From assembly GCA_020444165.1 (NCBI GenBank), contig JAHLLK010000004.1:62001-126000 (forward strand): a DNA stretch of 64,000 nucleotides. The letters are read 5' to 3'. Made by a program: the position numbers and the translations under genes. A model generated the notes under the pieces. That model had not been told where the DNA came from. It saw nothing but the letters and a program-made list of their open reading frames with translations, and did not search any database. Of this stretch, positions 11,981 to 61,164 are shown piece by piece. This DNA comes from Deltaproteobacteria bacterium (GTDB lineage Bacteria > Desulfobacterota > Desulfarculia > Desulfarculales > Desulfarculaceae). Every line of letters begins with the position of its first letter. Within the stretch, counting starts at the first letter, position 1.

Positions 11981-13626
11981 GGCAAGCCTACAATAAGATC
12001 GCCACCCGCATGCTCCTGACCGCGCTGGCCGTGGCCCTGATCCCCCTTTACCTAATCGGCGGGGCCATCTATTTCTACTACACCTTCCTGCACCAGGAAA
12101 AAATCAAGGAAGAGCTGATGACCCTGGCCGCCAACCGGGCCGGGGCCATCGAGTTGTTTCTGGCTGAGCGCACCACCCTCTTGGAGGTGCTCACCCGCTC
12201 CCAGAAGATGGAAGACCTGGTGGTGCCCGGCGCCCTGGACAAGATGTTCACCCTGTTGAACCAGCGGAGCTGGTCCTTTGTGGACCTGGGGGTCATCGAC
12301 AGCTCGGGCGAGCAGGTGGCCTACGTGGGTCCCTACCCCCTGCAGCACAAGGACTACGCCAAGGCCCAGTGGTTCCAGGAGACCATGCTCCGGGGGGTGT
12401 ACGTCAGCGACGTCTTCCTGGGCTTTCGGGGGGTGCCCCACTTCGTGGTGGCGGTCAAGCGCAACCAGAACGGCGGGGCCTGGATCCTGCGGGCCACCAT
12501 CGACTCCGAGGTGTTCAACCGCCTGGTCCTGGGCGTGCAGCTCCGCCAGCAGGGCGACGCCTACATCGTCAACGCCCAGGGCGTCTACCAGACCCCGCCC
12601 CGCTTCGGGGGCAAGCTCCTGAGCCCCTCGGAAATCAACCTCCAGGCGGCCCCCCGCACCATCTCGGTGGAGCCGCGCCAGGCCCGGGACGGCCGGGAAC
12701 TCTTGTCGGCCTATGTCTGGCTGAGCCCCAAGAACTGGCTGTTGGTCATCGAGGAGGACCCCGACGAGGCCATGGGGCCCATGAGCCTGGCCCGGGATCT
12801 GGAGGTGGTGATCCTCCTGTTGGGCACCATCCTGGTGGCCGCGGCCGTGGCCTTTTTGGTGCGGATCATGATCGGGCAGCTCCAGTCCCAGGACCGGGAG
12901 CGGGCCGCCCTGGACGCCCAGTTGGCCCACTCGGCCCGCCTGGTCTCCCTGGGCCGCCTGGCCACGGGCATCGCCCACGAGATCAACAACCCCTTGGCCA
13001 TCATCAGCGAGAACGCGGGGCTCCTGGAAGACCTGATGGACGCGGAGTTCCTGGCCTCGCACCCCGATGGCGAGCTGTTCCAAAAGACCCTGAAGACCAT
13101 CCAGGACAGCGTGTTCCGGGCCCGGGAGGTCACCCATCGCATGCTGGGCTTTGGCCAGCGCATGGCCCCCAAGTTGACCGATCTCTCCGTCAATGAAGTG
13201 CTCAGGGAAGCCTTCTCCTTCCTGGAAAAGGAAGCCGCCCTGAACAATGTGCGGGTGCTTTTCAACCTGGATGAGAGCCTGCCCCGCATCCGGAGCGACA
13301 CTTCCCAGTTGCAGCAGGTTTTCCTGAATCTCTTGCAGAACGCCCTGGACGCCGTGACCAAGGACGGCGAGATCGCCTTGACCAGCCACCTGGTGGATGA
13401 TTATGTGGAGGTGACCGTGACCGACACCGGGCCCGGCATACCTCCCGAGCTGCAGGACCGGGTCTTTGACCCCTTCTACACCACCAAGGACCCCGGCAAG
13501 GGCACCGGGCTGGGCTTGTCCATCAGCCACTCCATCATGCAGAAGCTGGGCGGCGCCCTGAGCCTGGCCAGCCAACCGGGTCATGGCTGCACATTTACCG
13601 TAAAGATTCCCAAGAGCATGGGGTAG
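11977..13626 (+). CDS. Membrane sensor histidine kinase with extracytoplasmic Cache domain
   Basis: The 549-residue protein has a first membrane helix at about residues 13-34, a periplasmic dCache-type sensor of about 230 residues (SWSFVDLGVIDSSGEQVAYVG is typical), and a second helix at about 275-297. A HisKA domain follows with the phosphorylated H334 in GRLATGIAHEINNPLAIIS. The HATPase domain has an N-box (LQQVFLNLLQNALDAV), G1 (DTGPGIPPE), an F-box (VFDPFYTTKDPGKGTGLGLS) and a final G-box. Sequence around H334 places it with the NtrB-like (HPK4) kinases. Its ATG overlaps the stop of the upstream phosphotransferase gene, and the response regulator follows 19 bases after its stop. Ligand unknown. 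Confidence 0.9.
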   Translation: MRQAYNKIATRMLLTALAVALIPLYLIGGAIYFYYTFLHQEKIKEELMTLAANRAGAIELFLAERTTLLEVLTRSQKMEDLVVPGALDKMFTLLNQRSWSFVDLGVIDSSGEQVAYVGPYPLQHKDYAKAQWFQETMLRGVYVSDVFLGFRGVPHFVVAVKRNQNGGAWILRATIDSEVFNRLVLGVQLRQQGDAYIVNAQGVYQTPPRFGGKLLSPSEINLQAAPRTISVEPRQARDGRELLSAYVWLSPKNWLLVIEEDPDEAMGPMSLARDLEVVILLLGTILVAAAVAFLVRIMIGQLQSQDRERAALDAQLAHSARLVSLGRLATGIAHEINNPLAIISENAGLLEDLMDAEFLASHPDGELFQKTLKTIQDSVFRAREVTHRMLGFGQRMAPKLTDLSVNEVLREAFSFLEKEAALNNVRVLFNLDESLPRIRSDTSQLQQVFLNLLQNALDAVTKDGEIALTSHLVDDYVEVTVTDTGPGIPPELQDRVFDPFYTTKDPGKGTGLGLSISHSIMQKLGGALSLASQPGHGCTFTVKIPKSMG

Positions 13627-13645
13627 GGGCCCCGGGGAGCGCGGC

Positions 13646-14035
13646 ATGAAATATTCCTTCCAGGTGCTGGTGGTGGATGATGAACGCGATTTCCTGGAGC
13701 CCTTGGTGGTGCGGCTCTGCCGGCGCGGACTGCAGGCCCAGGGGGTGACCAGCGGCGAGGCTGCCTTGGCCCATTTGGCCGCCCAGCCGGTGGACGTGGT
13801 GGTTCTGGACGTGAAAATGCCCGGCATGGACGGCATTCAGGCGCTCCGGGAGATCAAGGCCCGTTACCCCGACGTGGAGGTGGTGATGCTCACCGGCCAC
13901 GCCTCGGTGGAAGCGGGCATGGAGGGCCTCAAGCTGGGGGCCTTTGACTACCTCATCAAGCCGGTGAAGATCGACAAGCTGGTGGAGATCCTGGAGCAGG
14001 CCTACGAGCGCCGCCAGGTGGTGCAGGAAGGATAG
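13646..14035 (+). CDS. Single-domain response regulator
   Basis: The 129-residue protein is a lone receiver domain. The acidic pocket is D11/D12, the phosphorylated residue D55 (VVVLDVKMPGMDG), the switch threonine T83 (VMLTGHAS) and the conserved lysine K105 (DYLIKPVK). It has no DNA-binding output domain, so it must act by protein contacts, possibly on the upstream phosphotransferase or another kinase. GGGGAG precedes the ATG by six bases. It is the last gene before a strong terminator and is very likely the partner of the kinase just upstream. Confidence 0.9.
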   Translation: MKYSFQVLVVDDERDFLEPLVVRLCRRGLQAQGVTSGEAALAHLAAQPVDVVVLDVKMPGMDGIQALREIKARYPDVEVVMLTGHASVEAGMEGLKLGAFDYLIKPVKIDKLVEILEQAYERRQVVQEG

Positions 14036-33181: not shown

Positions 33182-33210
33182 AATATGGTTCCGGAGCCCA
33201 GACCTGTCAA
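33182..33210 (-). promoter_or_regulatory. Promoter of the Ni/Co importer operon
   Basis: On the minus strand TTGACA (33210-33205) and CATATT (33187-33182) are 17 bases apart; TATTAA (33185-33180) is an alternative -10. The -35 box overlaps the stop codon of the chemoreceptor gene. Transcription would begin about 175 bases before the ATG at 33000. Confidence 0.5.
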
Positions 33211-34673
33211 GTAGATATTGTGGGCAAGAGCCGCCGCTCCGAAGCGGCCGAGGCCGTCAGCTGCACCGCCGCCGCCCGGCCCGCGCCGTCCATGAGCCGG
33301 GCCAGCTCGGAGACCAACTCCAGGAGCCCGCTGGCCTGGTCGGCCAACTGATGGCTGGCTGCCGCGGACTCTTCGGAGTTGGCCGCCACGGACTGGGTCA
33401 CCTGGTCTATATCGGTCACCGCCTGGGCGATGTATTGCACGCTCTGGGACTGCTCCCGGCTGGCCGCCGCGATCTCGCGCACCAGGGCGGCCAGTTGGTC
33501 CGCGGACTCGCGCACTTGGCGGAACTCCTGGTCAGCCCCGGCCACCAGGGTCACGCCCTGGCGGATCTGGTTCAGGTTCTCCTCGATGAGGGACTGGGTG
33601 TTGCGGGCGGCCTCGGCAGCCCGGAGCGCCAGGTTGCGGACCTCGCCGGCCACCACCGCGAAGCCGGCCCCGGCCTCGCCGGCCCGGGCCGCCTCCACCG
33701 CGGCGTTCAGAGACAAGAGGTTGGTTTGAAAGGATATCTCGTCGATGGTCCTGACGATGGTGGCGGTCTGGGCGCTGGTCTGGCTCACCTGATCCATGGA
33801 GGCCCGGAGGCGCTGCATGGAAGTTTCGGCCAGGTCCATGGCCTGGGTCACCCGGGTCACCACCCCTTCGGCCGCCACCGCGTTATCGGTGTTGCTCTGG
33901 CTTTGGGATCCCATCTGCTCCAGGGAAGCCGAGGTTTGCTCCAGGGCCGCGGCCTGGCGGGAGGCGCCCTCGGCCAGGGACTGGCTGGCGTTGGCCACTT
34001 GGCCGGCCGCGGCGGAAACCTCCCCGGCCCCCACATCCAATCCGTCGATGACCGCGCTCAAAGAGCGGGTGATCGCCTTGGTGAGGCCCCAGGCCAGGAG
34101 CAAGCCCAAGGACAGGCAGAGCCCGGCGGCCAGGTAGGACAACAGACGCACGGTGGTGATTTCCCGGCCCAGGGTGTCCCGCTCGGCCTTGGCCATCTCC
34201 TGGGTGGCCTTGATCGCCGCCCGGGCCTCCTGGACCATGTCCTTGTCCGCCGCCTCCAGGTTGGCCTGGAGCCCGGGGTTGGCGGACTCTCGCCACAGGC
34301 GCTGGGCGGTGTCCACGTAATGGTGGAAGGACTCGCGGTACTTCTGGATGCCGGTGGTGAGAGCCTCCAGGCTTTTCCGGCCCTCGGCCGTGTCCCGGAG
34401 AGCGGTCAGCCCCATGGCCAAGCCGTTCATCTGTCCCACCAGCTTGTCCACCCGGCCGATGTACTCCTTGTCACGGCGCAGAATGAAGTTTTTCTCGTGC
34501 CGGCGGGCGTCGAGGATCAGTTTCTCCAAGGTGTCGGCTTGCACCGTCCGGGCCGTGCGCGACTCCACGCGGGAAAGCGCGAACCAGCCCAGCCCGGCCA
34601 CCAAAAGCATCAAGACGAGCACCACGGCGAATCCGCCGTACAGCTTGGTTTTCAGGTTGACGTGGACCCCCAT
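33207..34673 (-). CDS. Methyl-accepting chemotaxis protein with helical (HBM-like) sensor
   Basis: The 488-residue chemoreceptor has a membrane helix at about residues 10-32. A periplasmic helical sensor domain of about 150 residues carries [16 protein letters not shown], typical of helical bimodular (HBM) or 4HB sensors. A second helix at about 172-195 is followed by a short linker rather than a clear HAMP, then a signalling domain with the hairpin tip [20 protein letters not shown] and [20 protein letters not shown]. Of two nearby ATGs I chose the one at 34673, six bases after GGGGGAGG. Ligand unknown; HBM sensors often bind organic acids. No che genes are in the window. Confidence 0.9.
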
Positions 34674-34708
34674 GGCCATCCTCCCCCTATGACGTTGCCC
34701 CGCTGCCG

Positions 34709-34753
34709 CCGGATTCCGGACCACGGACGTTGGGGTGCACTCCGGGAATCCGG
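34709..34753. repeat. Inverted repeat upstream of the chemoreceptor gene
   Basis: CCGGATTCCGGA (34709-34720) and TCCGGGAATCCGG (34741-34753) are inverted copies with one extra base, 20 bases apart, in the 285-base gap before the chemoreceptor. They could be an operator or a folded leader. No convincing -35/-10 pair was found in this gap. Confidence 0.35.
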
Positions 34754-34842
34754 CCTATTTTGGATTTGGTTCAGCCTAATGGAACCGCTGCCAGGGGGAA
34801 ATGAGCAGGGGACTTCATTTGGGAAGGGAAATGCTTTCAAAA

Positions 34843-51252: not shown

Positions 51253-53064
51253 ATGTATTCCAGCGATCCCCAGATTCTGCGGAGCCTTTTTGACAGCCTG
51301 CCGCTGCCGGTTTTCGTGCTGGACCGGAGCCACCAGATCGTGTTGTGGAACAAGGCCTGCGAGATCTACACCGGGTTTGTCGCCAGCGAGATGGAAGGCA
51401 CCCGCCGCCAGTGGGAGCCCTTCTATGCGGCGCCGCGACCGGTGTTGGCCGACCTGCTCCTGGAGGACCACTCCGACGCGGAGGTGATCGGCCATTACGA
51501 CCGGGGGGTGGTGCGCCCCTATTCCCCCTTGCCTGGGGCCTGGATAGCCACCGACTTCTTTCCGTCTCTGGGCGGCCAGGAGCGGCATGTCCAGTTCTTG
51601 GCCGTGCCGGTGCGCCACCAGGACGGGGAGATGTGTTGCGTGGTGGAGACCCTGCAGGACGTTTCCCAGGAGACCGAGATCAGCCAGGCCTTGGTGGGCT
51701 CCCTGGAGCGCTACCGGCAGCTCTTCGAACAGGTGGCCGACGGAGTGGCCGTGCTCCAAGGGGGCCAGCTGGTGGAGGCCAATCCCGCCCTGGCCACCTT
51801 GTTCGGCTTCAGCTCGCCGGCCGAGATGCGCGCCTTGGCCAGCCTGGACCTGGTGGCCCCGGCCAGCCACCGCTTGGCCCGGGAGTTTTTGGAGCAGCCC
51901 TGGGAAAACAGGCCGCCGCGGACCGCCTATGAACTCTGCTGCCTGAAGAAGAGCGGCCGGGAGTTCTGGGTGCGGGGTCACGCGGCCGCCATTTCCTGGG
52001 AGGGGCGCGCCGCCTTGTTGTTCACCCTGCGCGACATCACCGCGCAAAAAAACCAAGAGGATTCCCTCCGGCGGGAAGCCGACGACTTGCGGGATGAGAA
52101 CCGGCAGTTGCGCACCTCGTTGGGCGACCGCTACCGCCTGGAGGGCATCGTGGGCCGCAGCCGGGCCATGCACCAGGTCTTCCGGCTGATCCTGCGGGCC
52201 GCGGCCTCCGAGGCCCCGGCCGTGGTGTTGGGGGAGTCCGGCACCGGCAAGGAGCTGGCGGCCCGGGCCATCCACCGTCTGAGCCGGCGGCGGGAGAAGG
52301 AGTTCGTGCCGGTGAACTGCGGGGCCATCCCGGAGACCCTCTTGGAAAGCGAGTTTTTCGGGCATAAGAAAGGCGCCTTCACCGGGGCGCACATCGACAA
52401 GCACGGCTACCTGGACCTGGCCCACCAAGGCACCTTGTTCCTGGATGAAGTGGGCGAGATTCCCCTCAGCATGCAGGTGAAGCTCCTCCGGGTGCTGGAC
52501 ACCGGGGAGTTCACCCCCCTGGGCAGCAACCGGAGCCAGCGGGCCGATCTGCGCATCATCGCCGCCACCAACCGCAACCTGGAAGAGATGGTGCGGGACG
52601 GCCGCATGCGGGCTGATTTCTACTACCGCTTGAGCGTGATCCCGATCAAGTTGCCGCCCCTCCGGGAACGCCAGGAAGACATTCCGCTTTTGGTGGAGCA
52701 TTTCCTGCGCCAGGCCTACGCCACGGGCGGCGCTCCAGTGCTCTCGCCAGCCGAGCAGGCCAGCCTGGCCGCCCACGACTGGCCTGGCAACGTGCGGGAG
52801 CTGCAGAACGTGCTGCACCGTTTCCAGAGCCTCGGCCGGCTGGATTTCCCCGGGTTCGGGGGCAAAAGCGAAACTACCCGCCGGAGCGAATCCGCTGACT
52901 CCGGGCCGGACCGGGAGTTGGCGCCGGCCCTGAACCGCTTGGAAAAGGCCCTGATGCTGGCCTCCCTGGAGAGAAACCACTGGAATCGGCAGGCCACGGC
53001 CCGCGAGTTGGCCATATCCCGCAAGACCTTGTACCTGAAGATGAAGCATCACGGGTTAACTTAA
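51253..53064 (+). CDS. Sigma-54-dependent enhancer-binding protein with PAS sensors
   Basis: The 603-residue activator starts with two PAS domains (about residues 8-140, LFDSLPLPVFVLDRSHQIVL; and about 150-275, RYRQLFEQVADGVAVLQGGQ). A coiled linker follows, then a sigma-54 AAA+ domain with Walker A GESGTGKE (327-334), the sigma-54-contacting GAFTGA (374-379), Walker B GTLFLDEVGE and the R-finger region LRERQEDIPLL. The C-terminus is a Fis-type HTH (RQATARELAISRKTLYLKMK). There is no receiver domain, so activity is controlled by a PAS ligand or redox signal. Three palindromes and a sigma-54 promoter lie just downstream, making the next operon its probable target. No strong ribosome site precedes the ATG. 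Confidence 0.93.
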   Translation: MYSSDPQILRSLFDSLPLPVFVLDRSHQIVLWNKACEIYTGFVASEMEGTRRQWEPFYAAPRPVLADLLLEDHSDAEVIGHYDRGVVRPYSPLPGAWIATDFFPSLGGQERHVQFLAVPVRHQDGEMCCVVETLQDVSQETEISQALVGSLERYRQLFEQVADGVAVLQGGQLVEANPALATLFGFSSPAEMRALASLDLVAPASHRLAREFLEQPWENRPPRTAYELCCLKKSGREFWVRGHAAAISWEGRAALLFTLRDITAQKNQEDSLRREADDLRDENRQLRTSLGDRYRLEGIVGRSRAMHQVFRLILRAAASEAPAVVLGESGTGKELAARAIHRLSRRREKEFVPVNCGAIPETLLESEFFGHKKGAFTGAHIDKHGYLDLAHQGTLFLDEVGEIPLSMQVKLLRVLDTGEFTPLGSNRSQRADLRIIAATNRNLEEMVRDGRMRADFYYRLSVIPIKLPPLRERQEDIPLLVEHFLRQAYATGGAPVLSPAEQASLAAHDWPGNVRELQNVLHRFQSLGRLDFPGFGGKSETTRRSESADSGPDRELAPALNRLEKALMLASLERNHWNRQATARELAISRKTLYLKMKHHGLT

Positions 53065-53089
53065 ACCCGTTTTGGGTAAATTTTTACCC
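53051..53089. promoter_or_regulatory. Two adjacent palindromes, candidate enhancer (UAS) sites
   Basis: Site 1 is ACGGGTTAACTTAAACCCGT (53051-53070; arms of seven bases), overlapping the end of the activator gene. Site 2 is GGGTAAATTTTTACCC (53074-53089; arms of seven). Both have cores of 16 bases with GGGT and ACCC ends, and their centres are 21 bp apart, two helical turns. Site 1 followed by TTTT could alternatively be a weak intrinsic terminator. Confidence 0.6.
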
Positions 53090-53349
53090 GTTAACACTTT
53101 TTTTACATAATATAAACGTTTTAGTTAATTCTAGTTGAAATTTTCAAGCGCCTGACGGGTAAATAATTGCCCAAATTCCTCCTCCCTGCGGCGATATTCC
53201 TTACTCCTCCCCCAGCCTTCGCCAACCCTCTCCCCTGTGGATAGTTATAAATATTATGTCGAATTAATCGCGTGTTACGCGGGCTCGTTTTGGGGTCGCC
53301 ACCTGCTCCCCCTTTTCCCCGGGGCCTCGGGGAGCCCTTTATCCGGCCC
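53090..53349 (+). other. Intergenic region between UAS-like sites and the sigma-54 promoter
   Basis: No gene is seen. 53090-53150 is strongly AT-rich (TTTTTTTACATAATATAAACG and following), unlike the surroundings, and could be a bend or an IHF-binding stretch, though no clear IHF consensus was found. The rest, up to 53349, is of ordinary composition and shows no further obvious motifs. Confidence 0.4.
53157..53172. promoter_or_regulatory. Third palindrome, candidate enhancer (UAS) site
   Basis: GGGTAAATAATTGCCC is a 16-base imperfect palindrome (GGGTAA/TTGCCC) that shares its left half with site 2. Its centre is 83 bp (about eight turns) from that of site 2 and about 190 bp before the sigma-54 promoter, a usual distance for enhancer sites. 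Confidence 0.55.
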
Positions 53350-53365
53350 TGGCATAGGGATTGCA
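53350..53365 (+). promoter_or_regulatory. Sigma-54 (-24/-12) promoter
   Basis: TGGCATAGGGATTGCA matches the consensus TGGCAC-N5-TTGCA at all but one of the conserved positions, with exact GG-N10-GC spacing. It points to the response regulator gene, whose ATG is 100 bases on. Confidence 0.75.
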
Positions 53366-53464
53366 AATCCCCAGACAACTCTTTGGTCCCGCGCGGAGCG
53401 CCCGCTTGCTCCGCCCGAGCCTGGCCGCCTGCCCGACCGCGGCGGTGTGACGCCCGGAGAAGTC

Positions 53465-53848
53465 ATGCATATCTTGGTGGTGGAAGACGAAAAGGCCACG
53501 GCGGATCTCCTTCTGGAATGCCTGCAAGCTTGGGGGCATGACGCGGTTTGCGCAGGCGATGGCGCGGCCGCCAAGCAGATGCTCAGCCGCGGGACAGGCT
53601 TCGACTTGCTGCTGCTGGATCTTTTTTTACCGGATGGCCTGGGGCACCACATGTTGCCCGCCTTCCGGGCCCTGCAACCGGAACTTCCCGTGGTCACCAT
53701 GACCGGCTCCAACACCCGCGAGTTGGAGCTTCAGGTGCGCCAGCAGGGCATCCTGTACTACATGTCCAAACCGTTCGAATTGATGGAACTCAAGCGCCTA
53801 CTGGATCATGTGGGACGGAATTCCGCCCTGGCGGCCAGCGACGTCTGA
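53465..53848 (+). CDS. Single-domain response regulator
   Basis: The 127-residue receiver domain has the acidic pair E7/D8, the phospho-acceptor D52 (LLLLDLFLPDGLG), T80 (TMTGSN) and K102 (YYMSKPFE). It has no output domain, so it may act as a CheY-like or phosphotransfer protein. GGAGA precedes the ATG. The gene is first after the sigma-54 promoter and lies 69 bases before a chemoreceptor gene. The frame is open upstream to 53237 but that part is non-coding in character. Confidence 0.88.
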   Translation: MHILVVEDEKATADLLLECLQAWGHDAVCAGDGAAAKQMLSRGTGFDLLLLDLFLPDGLGHHMLPAFRALQPELPVVTMTGSNTRELELQVRQQGILYYMSKPFELMELKRLLDHVGRNSALAASDV

Positions 53849-53917
53849 CCGCGCCCGCGCCCAATTCGAGCTATTTTCAGCCGGCCTGCTGGGGCGGTCC
53901 GGTAAAGGGAAAACACC

Positions 53918-55759
53918 ATGCGATTGACCTTGCAAAAGAAACTGGTTGTGGGGGGGTTGGTGCTGGTCCTGGCGCCCATCCTTGTTTTGGGTTGGTTTGC
54001 CTATGAAATGTCCTCGGAGGCCCTGACCCAACTGGCCCAGGAGAGCACGGTGGTCAAGGCCCGCGGCCTGGCCAATATGACGGACAGCCTGGTGCGCGAG
54101 GAGCTGAAGGTGGCCAGCGGGCTGGCCATGGGCAACACCACCCAGACGGCGGCGCAAAAGGTGGCCCAGGCGGGCCCGGAAGGGGCCGCGGCCGAGATCG
54201 CCGCCCTGGACCGCAAGCTGACCGCCTTCCGCGAGAGCCAGGGCACGGATTATGAAAACATCATGGCCCTGGACCGAAAGGGCCGGGTGTTCAGCGACGC
54301 GGCCGGCGGCAAGAGCAAGGGCCTGGACCTGAGCCAGCGGGCCTACTTCCAAAAGGCCATTCAGGGCCAGGCCTCGGTCGCGGAGGTGGTGATTTCCAAG
54401 CTCAGCGGCCGGCCGGTGGCCATCATCGCCACGCCCATCCCAGGCGCCCGCGGACTGGCCACCGGCGCCCTGGTCCTCGCTTTGGAGCTGGCAGACCTGA
54501 ACCAAAAGATCACCAGCGCCACCACCGGCCAGACCGGCTACGCCACCCTGCAAACAGCCGAAGGCGACGTGATCGCCCATCCCAAGCAGGAGTTCATCAT
54601 GAAGCTCAACATGAAGAAAGTGCCCGGGATGGAGAAGATCGCGGCCGCCGCGATGAACGGCCAGATCGGGGTGGAGGAGTACGACTTCAAGGGGGTGCAC
54701 AAGATCGCCGGCTTCGCCCCGGTCCCGGCCAACGGCTGGGTGGTCATGGCCATCCAGAACCAGGACGAGTTCCTGTCCGGCGTCTATCATCTCCGCAACG
54801 GGGTGGGCCTCATCGCTACGGTGTCCGCCGCCCTGGTGCTGCTCCTGGTCATCCTCTTCGCCCGGAGCATCACCCGTCCCATCAACCGGGTGGTCAGCGG
54901 CCTGGCCCAAGCCTCGGAGCAGGTCTCCGCGGCCTCCAGCCAGGTGGCGGCCAGCAGCCAGCAACTGGCCCAAGGCTCCAGCGAGCAGGCCGCGGCCCTG
55001 GAGGAGACCTCCGCGGCCTTGGAGGAGCTGAGCGCCATGACCCGCCAAAACGCGGACAACGCCGCCCAGGCCGACCGACTGAGCCGGCAGGCCGGCCAGG
55101 TGGTGGAAGAAGCCGCCCAGGTGACCCAGCAGTTGCAGGATTCCATGCAGTCCCTGTCCCAAGCCAGTCAGGAAACTTTCAAGATCATCAAGAGCATTGA
55201 CGAGATTGCCTTCCAGACCAATCTCTTGGCCCTGAACGCCGCGGTGGAGGCGGCCCGGGCCGGAGAAGCGGGCGCGGGCTTTGCCGTGGTGGCCGAGGAG
55301 GTGCGGAGCCTGGCGCTCAGGGCGGCGGAAGCAGCCAAGTCCACCTCTGATCTTATCGAAAGCACGGTGCAAGGCATCGGCCAGGGCGGCAACCTGGCCC
55401 AGCAGACGCAAACAGCCTTCGGCCACATGGCCGAAACCACCGAGCAGCTCACCGTTCTGATCGCCGAGATCGCCGCCGCCTCGGGGGAGCAGACCCAAGG
55501 TCTGACCTCCATCAGCCGCGCCGTGGAAGAGATGGACCAGGTGACCCAAACCGCGGCTTCCAGTGCGGAAGAAACCGCGGCCGCTTCCCAGGAAATGGCC
55601 GGTCAAGCCGCGAGCATGCACGGTTTCGTGGGCGACCTGGAGCGGGTGGTGCAGGGCGGCGGACGTCACCGGGAGGAGAATGACTTCCTCGGCGGCCAGT
55701 CCCTCCCAGAGGCCGAGCCCTGGCGGCAGCCCCGGCTGCTGCCCCGCCGCCAGGCCTGA
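53918..55759 (+). CDS. Methyl-accepting chemotaxis protein with dCache sensor
   Basis: The 613-residue receptor has a first membrane helix at about residues 9-30 and a periplasmic dCache domain ([60 protein letters not shown]). A second helix lies at about 292-312, followed by HAMP and the signalling domain with tip [20 protein letters not shown]. The helical array has a long Ser/Ala-rich segment ([20 protein letters not shown]). The short basic C-terminus lacks a CheR/CheB pentapeptide. dCache domains bind amino acids, organic acids or quaternary amines. Its operon is led by the response regulator and the sigma-54 promoter. Confidence 0.92.
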
Positions 55760-55770
55760 GCCGGGCCTGG

Positions 55771-55812
55771 AAAAAACCAGGGCCTCCCGCGCCAGCGGGG
55801 GGCCCTGGTTAT
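55771..55812. terminator. Bidirectional intrinsic terminator between convergent genes
   Basis: CCAGGGCC (55777-55784) pairs with GGCCCTGG (55801-55808), with an inner CCC/GGG pairing. On the minus strand the hairpin is followed by six T's (complement of 55776-55771), serving the methyltransferase gene. On the plus strand it is followed by TTATT, serving the chemoreceptor gene. Confidence 0.85.
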
Positions 55813-55825
55813 TGGCGAGGCAGAG

Positions 55826-56887
55826 TTAGCGCCAGTTTTCCCGGGCCAGGCGGCTGACCGCTCCGGTCAGGTCCAGGATGCGCCGGGCCTTTTCCGCGTT
55901 GAGGGAGCCCATGCCGCAGGCCGGGGTCACCAGGGCTTGGTCGGCCAGGGTCTGGCGGTCGAAGCCTTTGGCCGCCAGTTCGTTCAAGAGGGCCTCGAGG
56001 CCTTGCCACAACCCTGCGGCGGTCTCGTCACCCCGGAAATTGTCCGTGGGCACCGCGCCCCAAGCCACGGCCCCGCCCCGGGCAAAGAGCTGGGCCAGGG
56101 CCTCGGGATAGAGCAGCAGGTGCCGGCCGTAGCCGGCCGAGTCCAGATTCAGCACGTCTGCGCCGGCCTCGATCAACAACCCCCAGTCGGTATTGCCGCA
56201 GCAGTGCACCCCGATCACCACCTCGGGGGCCCGGCTGGTCAGCTCCTCGAAGCTGGCCGCGAGGAGCCCCAGCACGGTCTCCCGGTTCACCGGGGTGAAG
56301 GCGCTGCCGTAGCCTGAGAGATAGGGCTCGTCAAAGAAGATCATCAGCGGCCGGCCCAGGGGGGCCATTTGGGCCGCCTGGGCCGCGGCGGCGGCGCCCA
56401 GGCCCCGGGCCACGGCCTCGGCCAGCTCATCGTCAAAGACCAGCGCCTTGCCGTCCCGGCCCGTCACCGCCGCGGCCAGGGTCAGGGGCCCGGTGACGTG
56501 GCCCTTGACCCAGGGATACGCGCCGGCCGGCGCCCGGCCCACGGTCTGCAAAAAGGCGTGGAACCCCGCCGCCTCTGCCTCGCCCAGGCCAAAGGTGGTC
56601 AGGTCTTCCCCCAACAGGCGCTCGTAAAAGGCGGCCAGGGCCTCCTCCCGGGACAGGTCCGGGTGGGCCAGGACCTCCCGGCGGCCGGGGTCGGCGGTCA
56701 GGACCGGGTAGCAGGCCGGGGCGTACTGCAGATTCATGTCCTCCAAGGGGGACCGGGCCGGCAACTGCGGCCAATAGGGCATCTCGGGCAGACGCTCCAG
56801 CACGTCGGACACGGCTTGGCCGACCTCCAGATGGGGCAGGCTGCCGATGCCCGTGGCCGTGAAATGAGGCTTGAAATCCTTAGGCAC
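55826..56887 (-). CDS. MetE-like 'core' methionine synthase / UROD-superfamily methyltransferase
   Basis: The 353-residue protein resembles the C-terminal catalytic half of MetE and related UROD-fold zinc methyltransferases. It has TGIGSLPH at the start, FFDEPYLS (E187), IGVHCCGNTDW with the H-x-C zinc ligands H228 and C230, and TPACGMGSL with the third ligand C324. The folate-binding N-terminal half of full MetE is absent. Short proteins of this kind in anaerobes (core MetE) take the methyl group from a corrinoid protein, which would fit the cobalamin genes here; that function is inferred. The GTG at 56887 lies inside the end of efp (8-base overlap). Confidence 0.75.
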   Translation of the reverse strand: MPKDFKPHFTATGIGSLPHLEVGQAVSDVLERLPEMPYWPQLPARSPLEDMNLQYAPACYPVLTADPGRREVLAHPDLSREEALAAFYERLLGEDLTTFGLGEAEAAGFHAFLQTVGRAPAGAYPWVKGHVTGPLTLAAAVTGRDGKALVFDDELAEAVARGLGAAAAAQAAQMAPLGRPLMIFFDEPYLSGYGSAFTPVNRETVLGLLAASFEELTSRAPEVVIGVHCCGNTDWGLLIEAGADVLNLDSAGYGRHLLLYPEALAQLFARGGAVAWGAVPTDNFRGDETAAGLWQGLEALLNELAAKGFDRQTLADQALVTPACGMGSLNAEKARRILDLTGAVSRLARENWR

Positions 56888-57437
56888 GTTCCAGATAATC
56901 TCCGGTTCGGGTGTCGATCTTCAGCACGTCGCCTTCCTCGATGAACAGGGGCACCTGCACTACCAGGCCGGTCTCCAGGGTGGCGGGTTTGGTGGCGCCG
57001 GTGGCGGTGTCGCCCCGCATGCCCGGCTCGGTGTGGGTCACCTCCAGGTCCACGGTGATGGGCAGTTCCACCCCGATGGGCCGGCCCTGGAAGTACAGCA
57101 CCTGCAGGTCGATGTTGGGCTTGAAATAGTCCACCGCGCTGCCCAGGTGGTCGGCGGCCACGAACACCTGGTCATAGGTGTCGGTGTCCATGAACACGTA
57201 CTGGTCGCCTTCCTGGTAGAGGTACTGCATGTTCTTCTGCTCCAGGTCGGGCTTGTCCACCTTGGCCCCGGAACGGAAGGTCTGCTCCAACACCTGGCCG
57301 GTCTCCAGGTTCTTCAGCTTGGTGCGCACAAAGGCGCCGCCCTTGCCGGGCTTGACATGCTGGTATTCCACGATCACATAGGGCTTGCCCTCGATCTCCA
57401 CTTTCAAGCCCTTGCGAAAATCCGCCGTACTATACAT
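56880..57437 (-). CDS. efp: Elongation factor P
   Basis: EF-P relieves ribosome stalling at proline stretches. The 185-residue length and the three beta-barrel domains fit: MYSTADFRKGLKVEIEGKPY, KPGKGGAFVRTKLKNLETGQ with K32 at the tip of the loop that is modified in many species, GQVLEQTFRSG, and the C-terminal signature TGLVVQVPLFIEEGDVLKID. No epmA/epmB or other modification genes are adjacent. The ribosome site is weak (AGGTAGG). The gene overlaps the following methyltransferase gene by eight bases. Confidence 0.97.
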   Translation of the reverse strand: MYSTADFRKGLKVEIEGKPYVIVEYQHVKPGKGGAFVRTKLKNLETGQVLEQTFRSGAKVDKPDLEQKNMQYLYQEGDQYVFMDTDTYDQVFVAADHLGSAVDYFKPNIDLQVLYFQGRPIGVELPITVDLEVTHTEPGMRGDTATGATKPATLETGLVVQVPLFIEEGDVLKIDTRTGDYLERA

Positions 57438-57494
57438 AGAGTAGCCTACCTGTTGACTGAATGGGAAAAGGATAACCGATAATCGGGGTTGAGG

Positions 57495-58256
57495 TCACTC
57501 GCGGGCGGCCCGCCGGCGCGCGGCCCGCTCCAAGCTGCCCAGCCGCCGGGCCAGGTGGGCCTCCCGTGGGGAGACCCGGGGCCGGGGAGCCTCCGGAACC
57601 GCGGCCGGCGGAACGGCCGGGGCCACGGCCGGCTCCGGGGCGGGTGGTTTGGCCGCCGGCGGGGGAGCCGGCTCCGGCTGGGCGGCTTCCGCCCGGGCCG
57701 GGGGCACGCCGGCCAGCTCCTGCAACTGGGCCAGGCGCTTGATCAAGGCGTCGTCCCGGGGGCGCTCCCGGGAAAGCTTGTCGTAGATGCCCAAGGCCTG
57801 CCGGTAATGACCTTGGGAGGCGTAGACCTCGGCCAGGGTGGCCGTGGCCTGGGGGTCCTCGCCAAAATCGTCCTCGGGCTGCAGGGACAGGGACAGGGCC
57901 AAGGCCCGGGCCTGGTCCGCCTCGTGGCGGCGGCCGTCCTGGTCCAGGAGCCGGGCCATGCTCTCGAAGACCCCGGCGTGCTTGCGGAGCTGGTCCGCCG
58001 CGGTGTGCAGGTGGAAAAGGGCCTGCGCGGTGCGGCCCTGCTCCTCCAGCACCTGGGCCAAGAGATGCCGGGCGGCGATGTCGTCGGTGTTCACGACCAA
58101 CAGCCGCTCCAGCACCTGGGCGGCCTCGTCCTGGCGGCCCAGGCCGTAGTAGACCCGGGCCAGCTTCAGGGCCATGCGGGAGCCGGGGTTGTCAGCCACC
58201 CAGGCTTCCAGGATCATCAGCTCCGGAGAGCCGTTCTTGCCCCCCTCGGTGCTCAC
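57495..58256 (-). CDS. Tetratricopeptide-repeat protein
   Basis: The 253-residue protein has about four TPR-like helix pairs between residues 15 and 165 (MALKLARVYYGLGRQDEAAQ, ARHLLAQVLEEQGRTAQALF, TATLAEVYASQGHYRQALGI). A proline/alanine-rich, probably disordered stretch (about 175-225) and a basic C-terminal helix (RRLGSLERAARRRAARE) follow. It has no signal peptide. The GTG at 58256 overlaps the stop of the FtsB-like gene, so both are translated together. It is presumably a scaffold linked to division or envelope assembly; the partner is unknown. Confidence 0.8.
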   Translation of the reverse strand: MSTEGGKNGSPELMILEAWVADNPGSRMALKLARVYYGLGRQDEAAQVLERLLVVNTDDIAARHLLAQVLEEQGRTAQALFHLHTAADQLRKHAGVFESMARLLDQDGRRHEADQARALALSLSLQPEDDFGEDPQATATLAEVYASQGHYRQALGIYDKLSRERPRDDALIKRLAQLQELAGVPPARAEAAQPEPAPPPAAKPPAPEPAVAPAVPPAAVPEAPRPRVSPREAHLARRLGSLERAARRRAARE

Positions 58257-58555
58257 CGCTTCTCTTTCCCGGCCTGGGGCGCCGCCTCGTAAACCACTTC
58301 GTCGGGCCGCACCAGGTTCATCTCCCGGCGGCAGGCCTGCTCCAGGGCCTGGGGGTCGTCCCGGAGCCGCTCCGCCTGGCGGTAGAGGCCCTGGTTGACC
58401 GCGTCCAGTTCCAGATTGGCCTGGCGGACCTGCACCAGCTCCTGGTGGGCCCGCCGTAGCGTGCTGTAGCCGCGGTGCACGGCAAAAAGGCAGGCCAAGG
58501 CCAATACCCCCGCCAAAAGGAGCCACCAAGGGCTGCGTTTTTGGGGTTCGGCCAA
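58253..58555 (-). CDS. ftsB: FtsB/DivIC-like septum formation protein
   Basis: The 100-residue protein has a short cytoplasmic N-terminus, one membrane helix (WWLLLAGVLALACLFAVHRG) and a coiled coil (LRRAHQELVQVRQANLELDA and onward). The C-terminal part, DPQALEQACRREMNLVRPDE, matches the FtsB/DivIC consensus ending in REELGLVRPGE. These proteins form the FtsQBL complex at the division site. The TTG start at 58555 is preceded by GGAGG at five bases. The gene overlaps the TPR gene (GTGA). Confidence 0.82.
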   Translation of the reverse strand: MAEPQKRSPWWLLLAGVLALACLFAVHRGYSTLRRAHQELVQVRQANLELDAVNQGLYRQAERLRDDPQALEQACRREMNLVRPDEVVYEAAPQAGKEKR

Positions 58556-58577
58556 GGCAACCTCCAGGAGAAGGCCG

Positions 58578-59747
58578 TTAACTCAGGGGGTTACTATAAT
58601 ATGAACCGCCGCGGGGGTCAAGGGGCCAGGGCCGGCCCACCAGCCCCCGGACCAAGGCCGCCCACACCCCCGTGGGCTGCACCGCGCCCCGGAGGATGTC
58701 CCAGCCCAGTTCCAGGCCGCCGGGATGCCGCCGGGCCAGGCCCTGGAACAGGGTTGGCCAGCCGAAAGTCAGCCAGGCCAGCCTCGCGGCGTGGGCATGG
58801 TCCCGCCACAGGGTGTCCGCGAGTTCCGCGGGATAACGTTCCGGATTGCCGGCCAAAATGGCCCGCGCGGCCAGGCGGCCGGAGTACACGGCCGGGGCGA
58901 TGCCTTCGCCCAGGAAGGGATCGGCCAGCCCGGCCGCGTCGCCCACCACCAGGGCGCGGCCCCGCTGCACCACCCCCCGGCGGCCCGGCGGGCAGGGAAT
59001 CAGGGCGCCCCGCACCCGGCCCGGCTGCCCCAGGCCGTGGCGGGCCAAAAAACGGGCATAGGGCCGGTGGAGCCCCTGGGGCAGGGCCCCCCGGCGGCCG
59101 GTCCGCCCGGCCAGGCCCAGGTTCAGGGTGTCCCCCCGGCCAAAGGCCCAGCCATAGCCGCCCGGGGCGGAGCCCAACTCGATCAGCGCGGCCCCGGCCA
59201 GCAGCCCGGCCAGCCGGCCGGGGAGCGGACGCTCCTCCACCAGGGCCGCGAACACGTGCCCGGTGCGCCCCAGGCCCAGGTCCCGACCCACCCGGCCGAG
59301 CGCCCCGTCCGCGCCCACCAGCCAAGCGGCCTGCCAAGTGCCCCGGTCGGTCGCCACCCGGAAGCTCCCGGTCTGGGACGTCACCCGGGTCACCTTGGCC
59401 TGGCGGATTTCCGCGCCGGCCTGGGCGGCCCGTTCGGCCAGCCAAGCGTCCAGACGGGGCCGCTGCACGAACCAGGCCGCGGGCTCCCCGGCCCGGGAGC
59501 AGAGCGGCTCCTGCCCCGGGGCGGTGAGCCATAGAGTCTCCACCGGCCAGGCGGTGAGCCAGGCCGGCGGGTCCAGAAAGCCCAGGGCCTCCACTCCCCG
59601 CCGGGAAAGGCACCCGCCGCAGGGTTTTTCCCGGCCGAGGCGCGCCTCCAAGACCAGGACCCGCGCCCCGGCCCGGGCCAGTTCCACCGCCGCCGCCGCG
59701 CCAGCCGGGCCCAGCCCCACCACCATCACCGAAAAATCCGCCTTCAA
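58578..59747 (-). CDS. FAD-dependent oxidoreductase, geranylgeranyl reductase family
   Basis: The 389-residue flavoprotein has the dinucleotide motif VMVVGLGPAGAAAAVELARA, EARLGREKPCGGCLSRRGVE (the PCGG motif of geranylgeranyl reductases), VGADGALGRVGRDLG and RALVVGDAAGLADPFLGEGI with the FAD-binding GD. Members saturate isoprenoid chains of lipids or quinones, or act on other polyprenyl substrates; here menaquinone or a membrane lipid is plausible. The TTG at 59747 gives the expected short lead into the Rossmann strand, with GAGG eight bases before. Upstream in-frame starts to 59816 would add an unconserved arginine-rich piece. Confidence 0.82.
   Translation of the reverse strand: MKADFSVMVVGLGPAGAAAAVELARAGARVLVLEARLGREKPCGGCLSRRGVEALGFLDPPAWLTAWPVETLWLTAPGQEPLCSRAGEPAAWFVQRPRLDAWLAERAAQAGAEIRQAKVTRVTSQTGSFRVATDRGTWQAAWLVGADGALGRVGRDLGLGRTGHVFAALVEERPLPGRLAGLLAGAALIELGSAPGGYGWAFGRGDTLNLGLAGRTGRRGALPQGLHRPYARFLARHGLGQPGRVRGALIPCPPGRRGVVQRGRALVVGDAAGLADPFLGEGIAPAVYSGRLAARAILAGNPERYPAELADTLWRDHAHAARLAWLTFGWPTLFQGLARRHPGGLELGWDILRGAVQPTGVWAALVRGLVGRPWPLDPRGGSYYSNPLS
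58593..58621 (-). promoter_or_regulatory. Sigma-70 promoter of the FtsB-TPR operon inside the 3' end of the flavoprotein gene
   Basis: On the minus strand TTGACC (58621-58616), 17 bases and TATAGT (58598-58593) make a near-consensus promoter. It lies in the last codons of the upstream gene, about 38 bases before the FtsB TTG start. Confidence 0.6.
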
Positions 59748-59898
59748 CCGCCCGACCTCACTCCAAATCGCTGTCCCTGGGCCCTCGCTGGGCCTCTCCC
59801 CAGAGTTTCCGCGCAACCTTTGCGCCCGGCCCCCGGGTATGGTAATAACCCCTCACCTTTTAACGCGCTTGAAACCCTTTGGGCGAGAAAAAATCCCC

Positions 59899-61164
59899 AT
59901 GAGCACCCCCCGCCTGCTTTACGCCGACGAAAACGGCAACATCTACGACCATCCCGAGTTGGGCCTGGCCGGTTCCGCGGCCGGCCGCTGGGAGCCGGTG
60001 GACGAACGGGACTGCATCCCCCTGCCCGAGGGCAGCGAGATGTTCCTCCTGCCCGGCCGCCTGCCGGTGGGGGTGAACGCCAAGGGCGACTTCGAGGTCA
60101 TGGACCAGGATCTCCTGGAGCCGGACCAGACCGTGACCGCGGTGGCCGCCTTCATGGCCCCGGCCCACACCGCCACCCTCTGGGCCGCCTATCATACCCA
60201 GCCCGGCGCCCCCACCCTGCCGCTCTTTGCCTATGCCGCGGTGGGCTTCGCCCGGGGAGAGTTCGTGGTCACCGGGCTCCGGGTGGATCCCCTGCCCCGC
60301 CAGGACGCCGCCCGCTTCCCGACCCAGGAGGTCATCGCCTCCTCGGCCAAGCGGCTGTTGCGCAAGTATCAACACAACCGCCTGTGGCAGCACCTGGGCA
60401 ACTGCGCCCTGACCTACGGCTGCCCCGCGGCCAAGAACCTGATGATCGGCCGCTGGGAAGCGCCCCTGCCCACCAGCCCGGCCTGCAACGCCTCCTGCCT
60501 GGGCTGCCTCTCCTCCCAGCCGGACTGCCGGTTCCCGGCCACCCAGGACCGCATCGCCTTCGTGCCCGAGCCGGCCGAGGTGGCCGAGGTGGCCCTGCAC
60601 CACTTTGCCAACCAGCGTGACCCCCTGGTGAGCTTCGGCCAGGGCTGCGAGGGCGAGCCGCTGTTGCAGGAAGACCTGTTGGCCGAGGCCATCCACCTGA
60701 TCCGCCAAAAGGAGCCCACGGGCACCATCAACCTGAACACCAACGGCAGCAAGCCCGCGGCCGTGGCCCGGCTCATGCGCGAGGGGCTCACCTCCATCCG
60801 GGTGTCGGTGAACAGCCTCTTGCCCGCCCGCCACCAGGCCTATTACCAGCCCAAGGGCTGGAGCCTGGACGACGCGGTGGAGTCCATCCGCCAGGTCAAG
60901 CGGGCCGGTGGCCGGGCCTCCATAAACCTCCTGACCCTGCCCGGGGTCACGGACCAGCCCGAGGAAGCGGAGGCCCTGTACCGGCTCATCGCGGACACCC
61001 GCCTGGATTTGATCCAGTGGCGGAACCTGAACATCGATCCCGAGGTGTATCTGGACGAGCTGCACATCGCCCCGCCCCAGGAGCGCCTGGGCATCCCCCA
61101 GCTCATGGCCGAGGTGAAGAAGCGCTACCCCTGGGTGCGGCACGGTTATTTCAACCTCAAGTGA
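59899..61164 (+). CDS. Radical SAM protein of unknown function
   Basis: The 421-residue protein carries a canonical C-x3-C-x2-C cluster motif at C196, C200 and C203 (CNASCLGC), but only after a 195-residue N-terminal domain. GQGCEGEPLL (matching the GGEP motif position), TINLNTNGSKPAAVARLM and TSIRVSVNSLLPARHQAYYQ show the radical SAM half-barrel. Further cysteines C169, C175 and C210 flank the motif and might bind a second cluster. The N-terminal domain reads YADENGNIYDHPELGLAGSA and resembles nothing I can name. It is divergent from the flavoprotein gene. The ribosome site is weak (GGGCGAG). No peptide substrate gene is seen nearby. Confidence 0.8.
   Translation: MSTPRLLYADENGNIYDHPELGLAGSAAGRWEPVDERDCIPLPEGSEMFLLPGRLPVGVNAKGDFEVMDQDLLEPDQTVTAVAAFMAPAHTATLWAAYHTQPGAPTLPLFAYAAVGFARGEFVVTGLRVDPLPRQDAARFPTQEVIASSAKRLLRKYQHNRLWQHLGNCALTYGCPAAKNLMIGRWEAPLPTSPACNASCLGCLSSQPDCRFPATQDRIAFVPEPAEVAEVALHHFANQRDPLVSFGQGCEGEPLLQEDLLAEAIHLIRQKEPTGTINLNTNGSKPAAVARLMREGLTSIRVSVNSLLPARHQAYYQPKGWSLDDAVESIRQVKRAGGRASINLLTLPGVTDQPEEAEALYRLIADTRLDLIQWRNLNIDPEVYLDELHIAPPQERLGIPQLMAEVKKRYPWVRHGYFNLK

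What the first reader, a model, noticed from the sequence alone, without database searches (positions are those of the whole stretch)
51253..55759. Self-contained sigma-54 circuit: PAS enhancer-binding protein, three palindromes, sigma-54 promoter, response regulator and chemoreceptor
An activator with GAFTGA and no receiver domain is followed directly by repeated palindromes and a near-perfect -24/-12 promoter that reads into a response regulator and a dCache chemoreceptor. All parts of an inducible signalling module lie in 4.5 kb. Sigma-54 control of a receiver-chemoreceptor pair by a PAS-sensing activator suggests that a metabolic or redox cue sets the expression of a specific taxis pathway. 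I know of no described system with this exact layout.
Basis: partly seen in the sequence, partly recalled or inferred. Interest (0 to 1): 0.72.

Follow-up and report, generated by a model that had tools for sequence, protein, structure and literature searches.

The report
Local sigma-54 switch for a chemoreceptor
A PAS-domain activator gene sits beside repeated DNA palindromes and a sigma-54 promoter that lead into a receiver gene and a chemoreceptor gene: a self-contained on-switch whose layout is common in this bacterial group, but whose chemoreceptor target is unusual and points to a wider set of sigma-54-linked chemotaxis-like operons.

Summary
An enhancer-binding protein (EBP; PAS_4-PAS-AAA+-HTH_8, no receiver; 51253-53064) is followed by three similar 16-bp palindromes (53053-53172; 0 of 1000 shuffles give three) and the only strong -24/-12 site in the window (53350), which reads into a complete single-domain receiver (53465-53848) and a dCache chemoreceptor (53918-55759).

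The layout is not new: in one class relative 12 of 28 EBP genes have a same-strand sigma-54 site 110-249 bp after the stop. The cassette is not conserved: three EBP relatives have other neighbours, and the window module sits at a synteny breakpoint.

Their first gene encodes an orphan ~130-aa protein, predicted CheY-like fold, no phospho-acceptor aspartate. That family occurs in 49 of 395 sampled phylum genomes. Of 60 such genes examined, 36 lie within 700 bp behind an EBP gene, all 36 EBPs in one 100/100 branch; sigma-54 sites are enriched (17/60 vs 6/483). The window is a variant: a true receiver in that slot, and an EBP from another branch. Signal, DNA binding and function are inferred.

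The parts
51253..53064 (+). one-component sigma-54 enhancer-binding protein, PAS_4-PAS-AAA+(GAFTGA)-HTH_8, 603 aa
   Evidence: Pfam and NCBIfam; alignment with relatives; branch of 10 PAS-type EBPs at 100/100
53053..53068 (.). palindrome 1, overlaps the EBP stop codon; candidate upstream activating sequence
53074..53089 (.). palindrome 2; candidate upstream activating sequence (may also help terminate the EBP transcript)
53157..53172 (.). palindrome 3; candidate upstream activating sequence
53350..53365 (+). -24/-12 sigma-54 promoter TGGCATAGGGATTGCA; transcript start expected near 53376 (inference)
   Evidence: only site of 6/7 or better on either strand of the window
53465..53848 (+). single-domain response regulator, 127 aa, D52 and conserved Thr and Lys present
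   Evidence: PF00072; alignment A5
53918..55759 (+). dCache_1 methyl-accepting chemoreceptor, 613 aa
   Evidence: Pfam; class relatives up to 48%
55775..55810 (+). terminator-like hairpin between the MCP gene and the convergent MetE/URO-D-like gene
   Evidence: -37.1 kcal/mol, z -3.98

Best explanation
This is a locally wired, signal-dependent sigma-54 switch for one chemoreceptor. The PAS_4-PAS part of the EBP senses an unknown intracellular cue. The active EBP binds the three palindromes just behind its own gene, forms an AAA+ ring and remodels sigma-54 polymerase at 53350. One transcript then makes a receiver and a dCache chemoreceptor, so the cell adds this receptor and its receiver to its taxis or chemosensory array only when the cue is present. 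Shown here by computation: domains, palindromes, promoter, gene order, and recurrence of 'sigma-54 site - small (beta-alpha)5 protein - related chemoreceptor' in some relatives. Inferred: DNA binding by this EBP, sigma-54 use, co-transcription, the cue, and that the receiver works with this receptor. The window version looks like a re-wired variant of a wider Desulfobacterota theme in which another EBP branch precedes operons that start with an orphan CheY-like-fold protein.
For: EBP domains; three spaced palindromes, 0 of 1000 shuffles; one strong -24/-12 site. The arrangement is frequent: 12 of 28 EBPs of G022 have a same-strand site 110-249 bp downstream, 0 of 28 on the other strand. EBP relative L098 has two exact GGACGTTTTTGTCC dyads 71 bp apart behind its stop codon, then TGGCACGCATGTTGCC, then TRAP transporter genes. 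The two best MCP matches in the class, L168 (48%) and L169 (46%), lie behind sigma-54 sites (7 and 6 of 7) and a small first gene; L168 also has a receiver-type EBP upstream. No Rfam match in 52900-54100.
Against: Gene order is not conserved. At E<=1e-40 only 1 of 63 class genomes has this EBP N-terminus, and that genome has no MCP match at E<=1e-15. Relatives L001 and L002 show no sigma-54 site of 5/7 or better behind the EBP. Of 30 MCP-relative loci only 3 (L168, L169, L195) have the small first gene, and none has a single-domain receiver beside the MCP within the 1.5-kb flanks. A weak sigma-70-like match lies at 53083-53111. The window's own genome is not held, so CheA, flagella and rpoN could not be checked.
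Confidence: 0.78

Rival explanations
1. The palindromes are mainly an autoregulatory operator or a transcription terminator of the EBP gene, and the sigma-54 promoter is served by another EBP.
For: Palindrome 1 overlaps the EBP stop codon; palindromes 1 and 2 fold as RNA hairpins (-16.9 kcal/mol, z -3.33) followed by a T run; the scan calls 53065-53077 terminator-like.
Against: Palindrome 3 lies 67 bp beyond palindrome 2, belongs to the same family in near-integral helical register and has no T run behind it. Repeated dyads with a sigma-54 site also follow the EBP of relative L098. In G022 the sigma-54 sites behind EBPs are on the same strand only.
Confidence: 0.12
2. The receiver-MCP operon is expressed from a sigma-70 promoter and the sigma-54-like site is chance.
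For: One sigma-70-like match at 53083-53111 (0.3 expected in the 5 kb scanned).
Against: The sigma-54 site is the only one of 6/7 or better on either strand and lies in the right strand and gap; such sites occur upstream of only 6 of 483 control frames from relatives.
Confidence: 0.05
3. The receiver is not a taxis output but part of another two-component pathway (or a phosphate sink) that merely shares the operon with the MCP.
For: No CheY model is among the 25 best of 83 NCBIfam matches; the top ones are TorS and NtrC. In class genomes its best matches lie mostly in frames of larger proteins. Of 28 database hits, besides itself two single-domain proteins are closest (P0102 52%, P0103 48%, the latter named NtrC family by its source); most others carry an OmpR-type DNA-binding domain.
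Against: In some relatives the same slot in front of related MCPs is filled by another (beta-alpha)5 protein, which suggests a receptor-linked role for the slot.
Confidence: 0.4

Closest known systems
EBP-adjacent sigma-54 regulons of Desulfovibrio vulgaris (Kazakov et al. 2015, PMC4641369; sections 5, 6, 7 and 13 read)
   Same: One-component PAS-type EBPs; EBP genes often co-localised with their target promoters; sequence-specific UASs, one described as an AT-rich palindrome; most regulons of 1-4 operons.
   Different: Two chemotaxis operons are counted but no regulator is given for them in Table 2; chemotaxis is among the functions of promoters without a predicted UAS; Table 1 gives chemotaxis as the function of no EBP. 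Gene identities behind the locus tags were not checked.
Response-regulator target map of D. vulgaris (Rajeev et al. 2011, PMC3333781; passages seen)
   Same: A figure legend lists 'MCP' among the gene abbreviations of mapped sigma-54 and other targets, so an MCP lies in at least one drawn region.
   Different: Regulators there are receiver-type; the figure is not held, so which regulator and whether the MCP is a direct target is unknown to me.
EBP locus of Desulfocarbo indianensis (G178, L198; name taken from protein P0084 and the shared contig length of 152,422 bases)
   Same: EBP - palindrome - sigma-54 site - ~130-aa (beta-alpha)5 protein - dCache MCP whose first 321 residues are 48% identical to the window's.
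   Different: EBP has a receiver domain and belongs to another branch; first gene lacks a phospho-acceptor Asp; a PAS hybrid kinase follows the MCP.
EBP relative L098/L128 (class genome G431)
   Same: PAS_4-PAS EBP (38% over the N-terminal 300 residues), repeated dyads behind the stop codon, -24/-12 site TGGCACGCATGTTGCC.
   Different: Dyad sequence differs (GGAC-N6-GTCC) and the target is a TRAP transporter: DctP, then DctQ-DctM (Pfam).

Membership tests
one-component sigma-54 enhancer-binding protein | AAA+ sigma-54 interaction domain with GAFTGA | tested here: met
   PF00158 7.7e-68; GAFTGA in the sequence
one-component sigma-54 enhancer-binding protein | sensory N-terminus without receiver; Fis-type HTH at the C-terminus | tested here: met
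   PAS_4, PAS, HTH_8; no PF00072 at E<=0.001
one-component sigma-54 enhancer-binding protein | binds UAS DNA and hydrolyses ATP to open sigma-54 complexes | not testable with these tools
   needs purified protein
sigma-54 promoter | GG-N10-GC core in TGGCAY-N5-TTGCW | tested here: met
   TGGCATAGGGATTGCA, 7 of 7
single-domain response regulator | receiver fold with acidic pair, phospho-acceptor Asp, conserved Thr and Lys | tested here: met
   PF00072 over 3-112; alignment A5
chemotaxis CheY | phosphorylated by CheA, acts on the flagellar motor | not testable with these tools
   no CheY model among the 25 best NCBIfam matches shown, which does not exclude it
dCache methyl-accepting chemoreceptor | dCache_1 sensor plus MCPsignal domain | tested here: met
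orphan A4 family (CheY-like-fold first gene) | match to the A4 profile | tested here: not met
   no window frame of 60 aa or more matches A4 at E<=10; the window receiver only occupies the same slot
EBP branch linked to A4 genes | falls in the branch that holds all 36 A4-linked EBPs | tested here: not met
   window EBP lies in a separate 10-row branch, 100/100
A4 family as receiver domains | receiver fold and homology | tested here: inconclusive
   predicted (beta-alpha)5, pLDDT 88.8; receivers make up most of the best PDB matches but type II dehydroquinases and arginine decarboxylase domains score alike; profile comparison with nine receiver proteins: probability 1.5%

The most novel reading that the evidence does not exclude
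Desulfobacterota hold a recurrent regulatory unit that I found described nowhere in my searches: one EBP branch activates sigma-54 operons that open with an orphan ~130-aa CheY-like-fold protein without phospho-acceptor (family A4) and continue into chemoreceptors, CheW or other signalling genes. The first-gene product would tune or adapt the co-expressed receptor, so a cell installs receptors together with their own modulator on demand. The window module is a re-wired variant: a true receiver takes the modulator slot and a PAS-sensing EBP from another branch replaces the usual activator.
Probability: 0.4. Interest if true: 0.66.

Novelty: new variant of a known kind. Interest (0 to 1): 0.45.

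Why it matters
Chemoreceptor genes are usually treated as constitutive or tied to the flagellar cascade (general knowledge, recalled). Here a receptor gene carries its own signal-dependent sigma-54 switch, and some related receptors in the class lie behind sigma-54 sites, a different EBP branch and a small (beta-alpha)5 protein as first gene. That makes it testable whether these bacteria install taxis receptors in response to internal cues, and what a CheY-like-fold partner without a phospho-acceptor does for a receptor.

Tried and rejected
Rejected: that the cassette is an old conserved unit. Four relatives (L129, L131, L132, L135) have the efflux operon directly followed by the radical-SAM...EF-P block and no module; in the window that block is inverted and the module sits at the junction. 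Rejected: a known RNA between the genes (no Rfam match at E<=1). Rejected: that the window receiver belongs to the A4 family. Not supported: sequence homology of A4 to receivers. Looked for and not found: a single-domain receiver next to any of 30 MCP-relative loci (receiver matches there were only two frames of about 450 aa, beside L175 and L183). Not followed: a heme reading of PAS2, which matches DosP only weakly (E 3e-4). Ligand of the dCache domain left open; best solved relatives are MCP sensors at E about 1e-4. Greedy ORF calling chose wrong-strand frames in some high-G+C loci (for example L170, L180), so neighbours listed there were not counted; the profile search replaces it. Literature: searches gave no listed title or abstract that describes an EBP controlling a receiver-chemoreceptor pair, or the A4 family. 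Of the listed papers I read sections 5, 6, 7 and 13 of PMC4641369 and saw passages of PMC3333781 and PMC3162934; for the rest listings only.
Full report
What is there. The stretch encodes a 603-aa EBP (PAS_4, PAS, AAA+ with GAFTGA, HTH_8, no receiver), a 127-aa single-domain receiver with D52 and the conserved Thr and Lys, and a 613-aa dCache_1 chemoreceptor, all on the + strand. Between EBP and receiver lie three 16-bp palindromes at 53053, 53074 and 53157 (spacing 21 and 83 bp) and one -24/-12 site at 53350. In 1000 dinucleotide shuffles of 53040-53464 no shuffle gave three similar palindromes (0 copies in 113, 1 in 883, 2 in 4); the site scores 7 of 7 and is the only one of 6 or more on either strand of the 64 kb. 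By the looser test (one mismatch allowed) one match in 64 kb is fewer than chance gives (3.3). A strong hairpin follows the MCP gene. No Rfam family matches 52900-54100.

Who it belongs to. EF-P of the window is 77-81% identical to nine genomes, all found in one class (list). The window's own genome is not held.

Conservation. Among the 80 database hits (7,998 candidates scored) none besides the protein itself exceeds 42% identity over the EBP N-terminus. In 63 class genomes a hit at E<=1e-40 occurs in one (G431/L098, 38%); weaker hits lie mostly in frames of 600-1100 aa. Of the 80 loci only L001 and L002 carry an AAA+ domain in the same frame as the N-terminal match; with L098 that makes three EBP relatives with readable neighbourhoods. 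L098 has two exact GGACGTTTTTGTCC copies (3276, 3347) behind the stop codon, then TGGCACGCATGTTGCC, then DctP and DctQ-DctM genes. L002 has one palindrome across the stop codon and no site of 5/7 or better, before an AMP-binding (acetyl-CoA-synthetase-like) gene. L001 has neither. So the activator family can keep its layout while dyad and target change, but does so in only one of three. The window palindromes are significant in the shuffle test; for the other loci the same test gives no strong support (L098: pair test 196 of 500 shuffles as good, because its dyads fail the 16-bp palindrome measure; L002 80 of 500 for the single palindrome), and the L098 claim rests on the exact repeat. Around the module, L129, L131, L132 and L135 show efflux operon - radical SAM - GGR - FtsB-like - EF-P - MetE-like without the module; in the window the block is inverted and the module sits at the efflux/MetE-like junction.

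The layout is ordinary. Of 28 PF00158 genes in G022, 12 have a same-strand sigma-54 site (6/7 or better) within about 1 kb behind the stop codon, all at 110-249 bp, and 0 of 28 have one on the opposite strand. EBP-target co-localisation is described for D. vulgaris (PMC4641369).

The target is less ordinary. Matches to the MCP sensor part occur in 12 of 63 class genomes at E<=1e-15; the best two are 48% (L168, G178) and 46% (L169, G125). L168 reads: receiver-type EBP, TGGCATATTTGTTGCT, a ~130-aa protein, MCP, PAS hybrid kinase. L169 and the weaker relative L195 (27%) have the same site - small protein - MCP order, and in the longer G443 contig an EBP lies upstream of the L195 gene (L200). But only these 3 of 30 MCP-relative loci have the small gene; the third-best match (42%, G096) is not among them. 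The small proteins have no Pfam family over its cut-off and form a profile family (A4; 20 database proteins; alignment). AlphaFold2 gives a confident (beta-alpha)5 model (pLDDT 88.8); receivers make up most of the best PDB matches, but type II dehydroquinases and arginine decarboxylase domains score alike; profile comparison with nine receiver proteins gives no support (probability 1.5%). I see no conserved Asp at the end of strand 3.

Survey of A4. 49 of 395 phylum genomes (at most 10 candidates per genome scored, so a lower bound) and 13 of 63 class genomes match at E<=1e-8: 68 places plus 14 further ones, 82 in all. I fetched 60 of the 82, mostly the best-scoring. Of 60, 36 have a same-strand EBP frame ending 189-691 bp upstream (29 with a detected receiver; small genes in the gap were not excluded), 23 have an MCP-signal, dCache or CheW frame within 3.5 kb downstream, and 17 have a sigma-54 site of 6/7 or better within 450 bp upstream; 11 have both EBP and site. 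Controls: 6 of 713 long frames, 6 of 483 longest non-overlapping frames (Fisher p 3.6e-13; at 5/7 or better 22 of 60 against 29 of 483). The rows are related, so p is optimistic, and the control frames are not verified genes. 43 of 60 show no strong site and 24 of 60 no EBP. Ten next-genes were put to Pfam (two in loci already counted above): five match MCPsignal (two over the cut-off), two 4HB_MCP_1 under the cut-off, one is CheA-like, one a hybrid kinase, one a kinase-EBP fusion. Others, such as L297 and L315, have unrelated-looking neighbours.

Tree. In a tree of 74 EBPs all 36 A4-linked EBPs lie in one 39-row branch (100/100), together with three G022 EBPs that have no A4 match in the 1 kb behind them; one of these (L255) is followed by a sigma-54 site and a CheW-domain frame. 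The window EBP lies in another branch of 10 PAS-type EBPs (100/100). The bootstrap had not fully settled.

Reading. The window module is most likely a genuine local sigma-54 switch for a chemoreceptor and a receiver, built from a PAS-type EBP and a receptor whose two nearest class relatives lie behind sigma-54 sites with another small first gene. The cue, binding, transcription and signalling role remain inferred.

Noticed in passing
window 55826-61164: The MetE-like - EF-P - FtsB-like - GGR - radical SAM block is inverted relative to the efflux operon compared with L129, L131, L132 and L135; the module marks one breakpoint.
   Followed up: partly
L280-L338 and L200 (60 loci): Orphan A4 family: ~130-aa predicted CheY-like fold without phospho-acceptor, often behind one EBP branch and before chemotaxis-like genes.
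   Followed up: partly
window 33210-34754: A second MCP-signal frame on the - strand.
   Followed up: no
window 11764-14032: A histidine-kinase-like frame (11764-13623) overlapping a receiver frame (13604-14032), + strand.
   Followed up: no
L254: A receiver-type EBP of G022 followed by overlapping palindromes and a CheW frame.
   Followed up: no
L290, L293, L303, L306, L326: Proteins of about 570-640 aa downstream of A4 genes that match MCPsignal, three of the five below its cut-off; possibly divergent receptor-like proteins.
   Followed up: no
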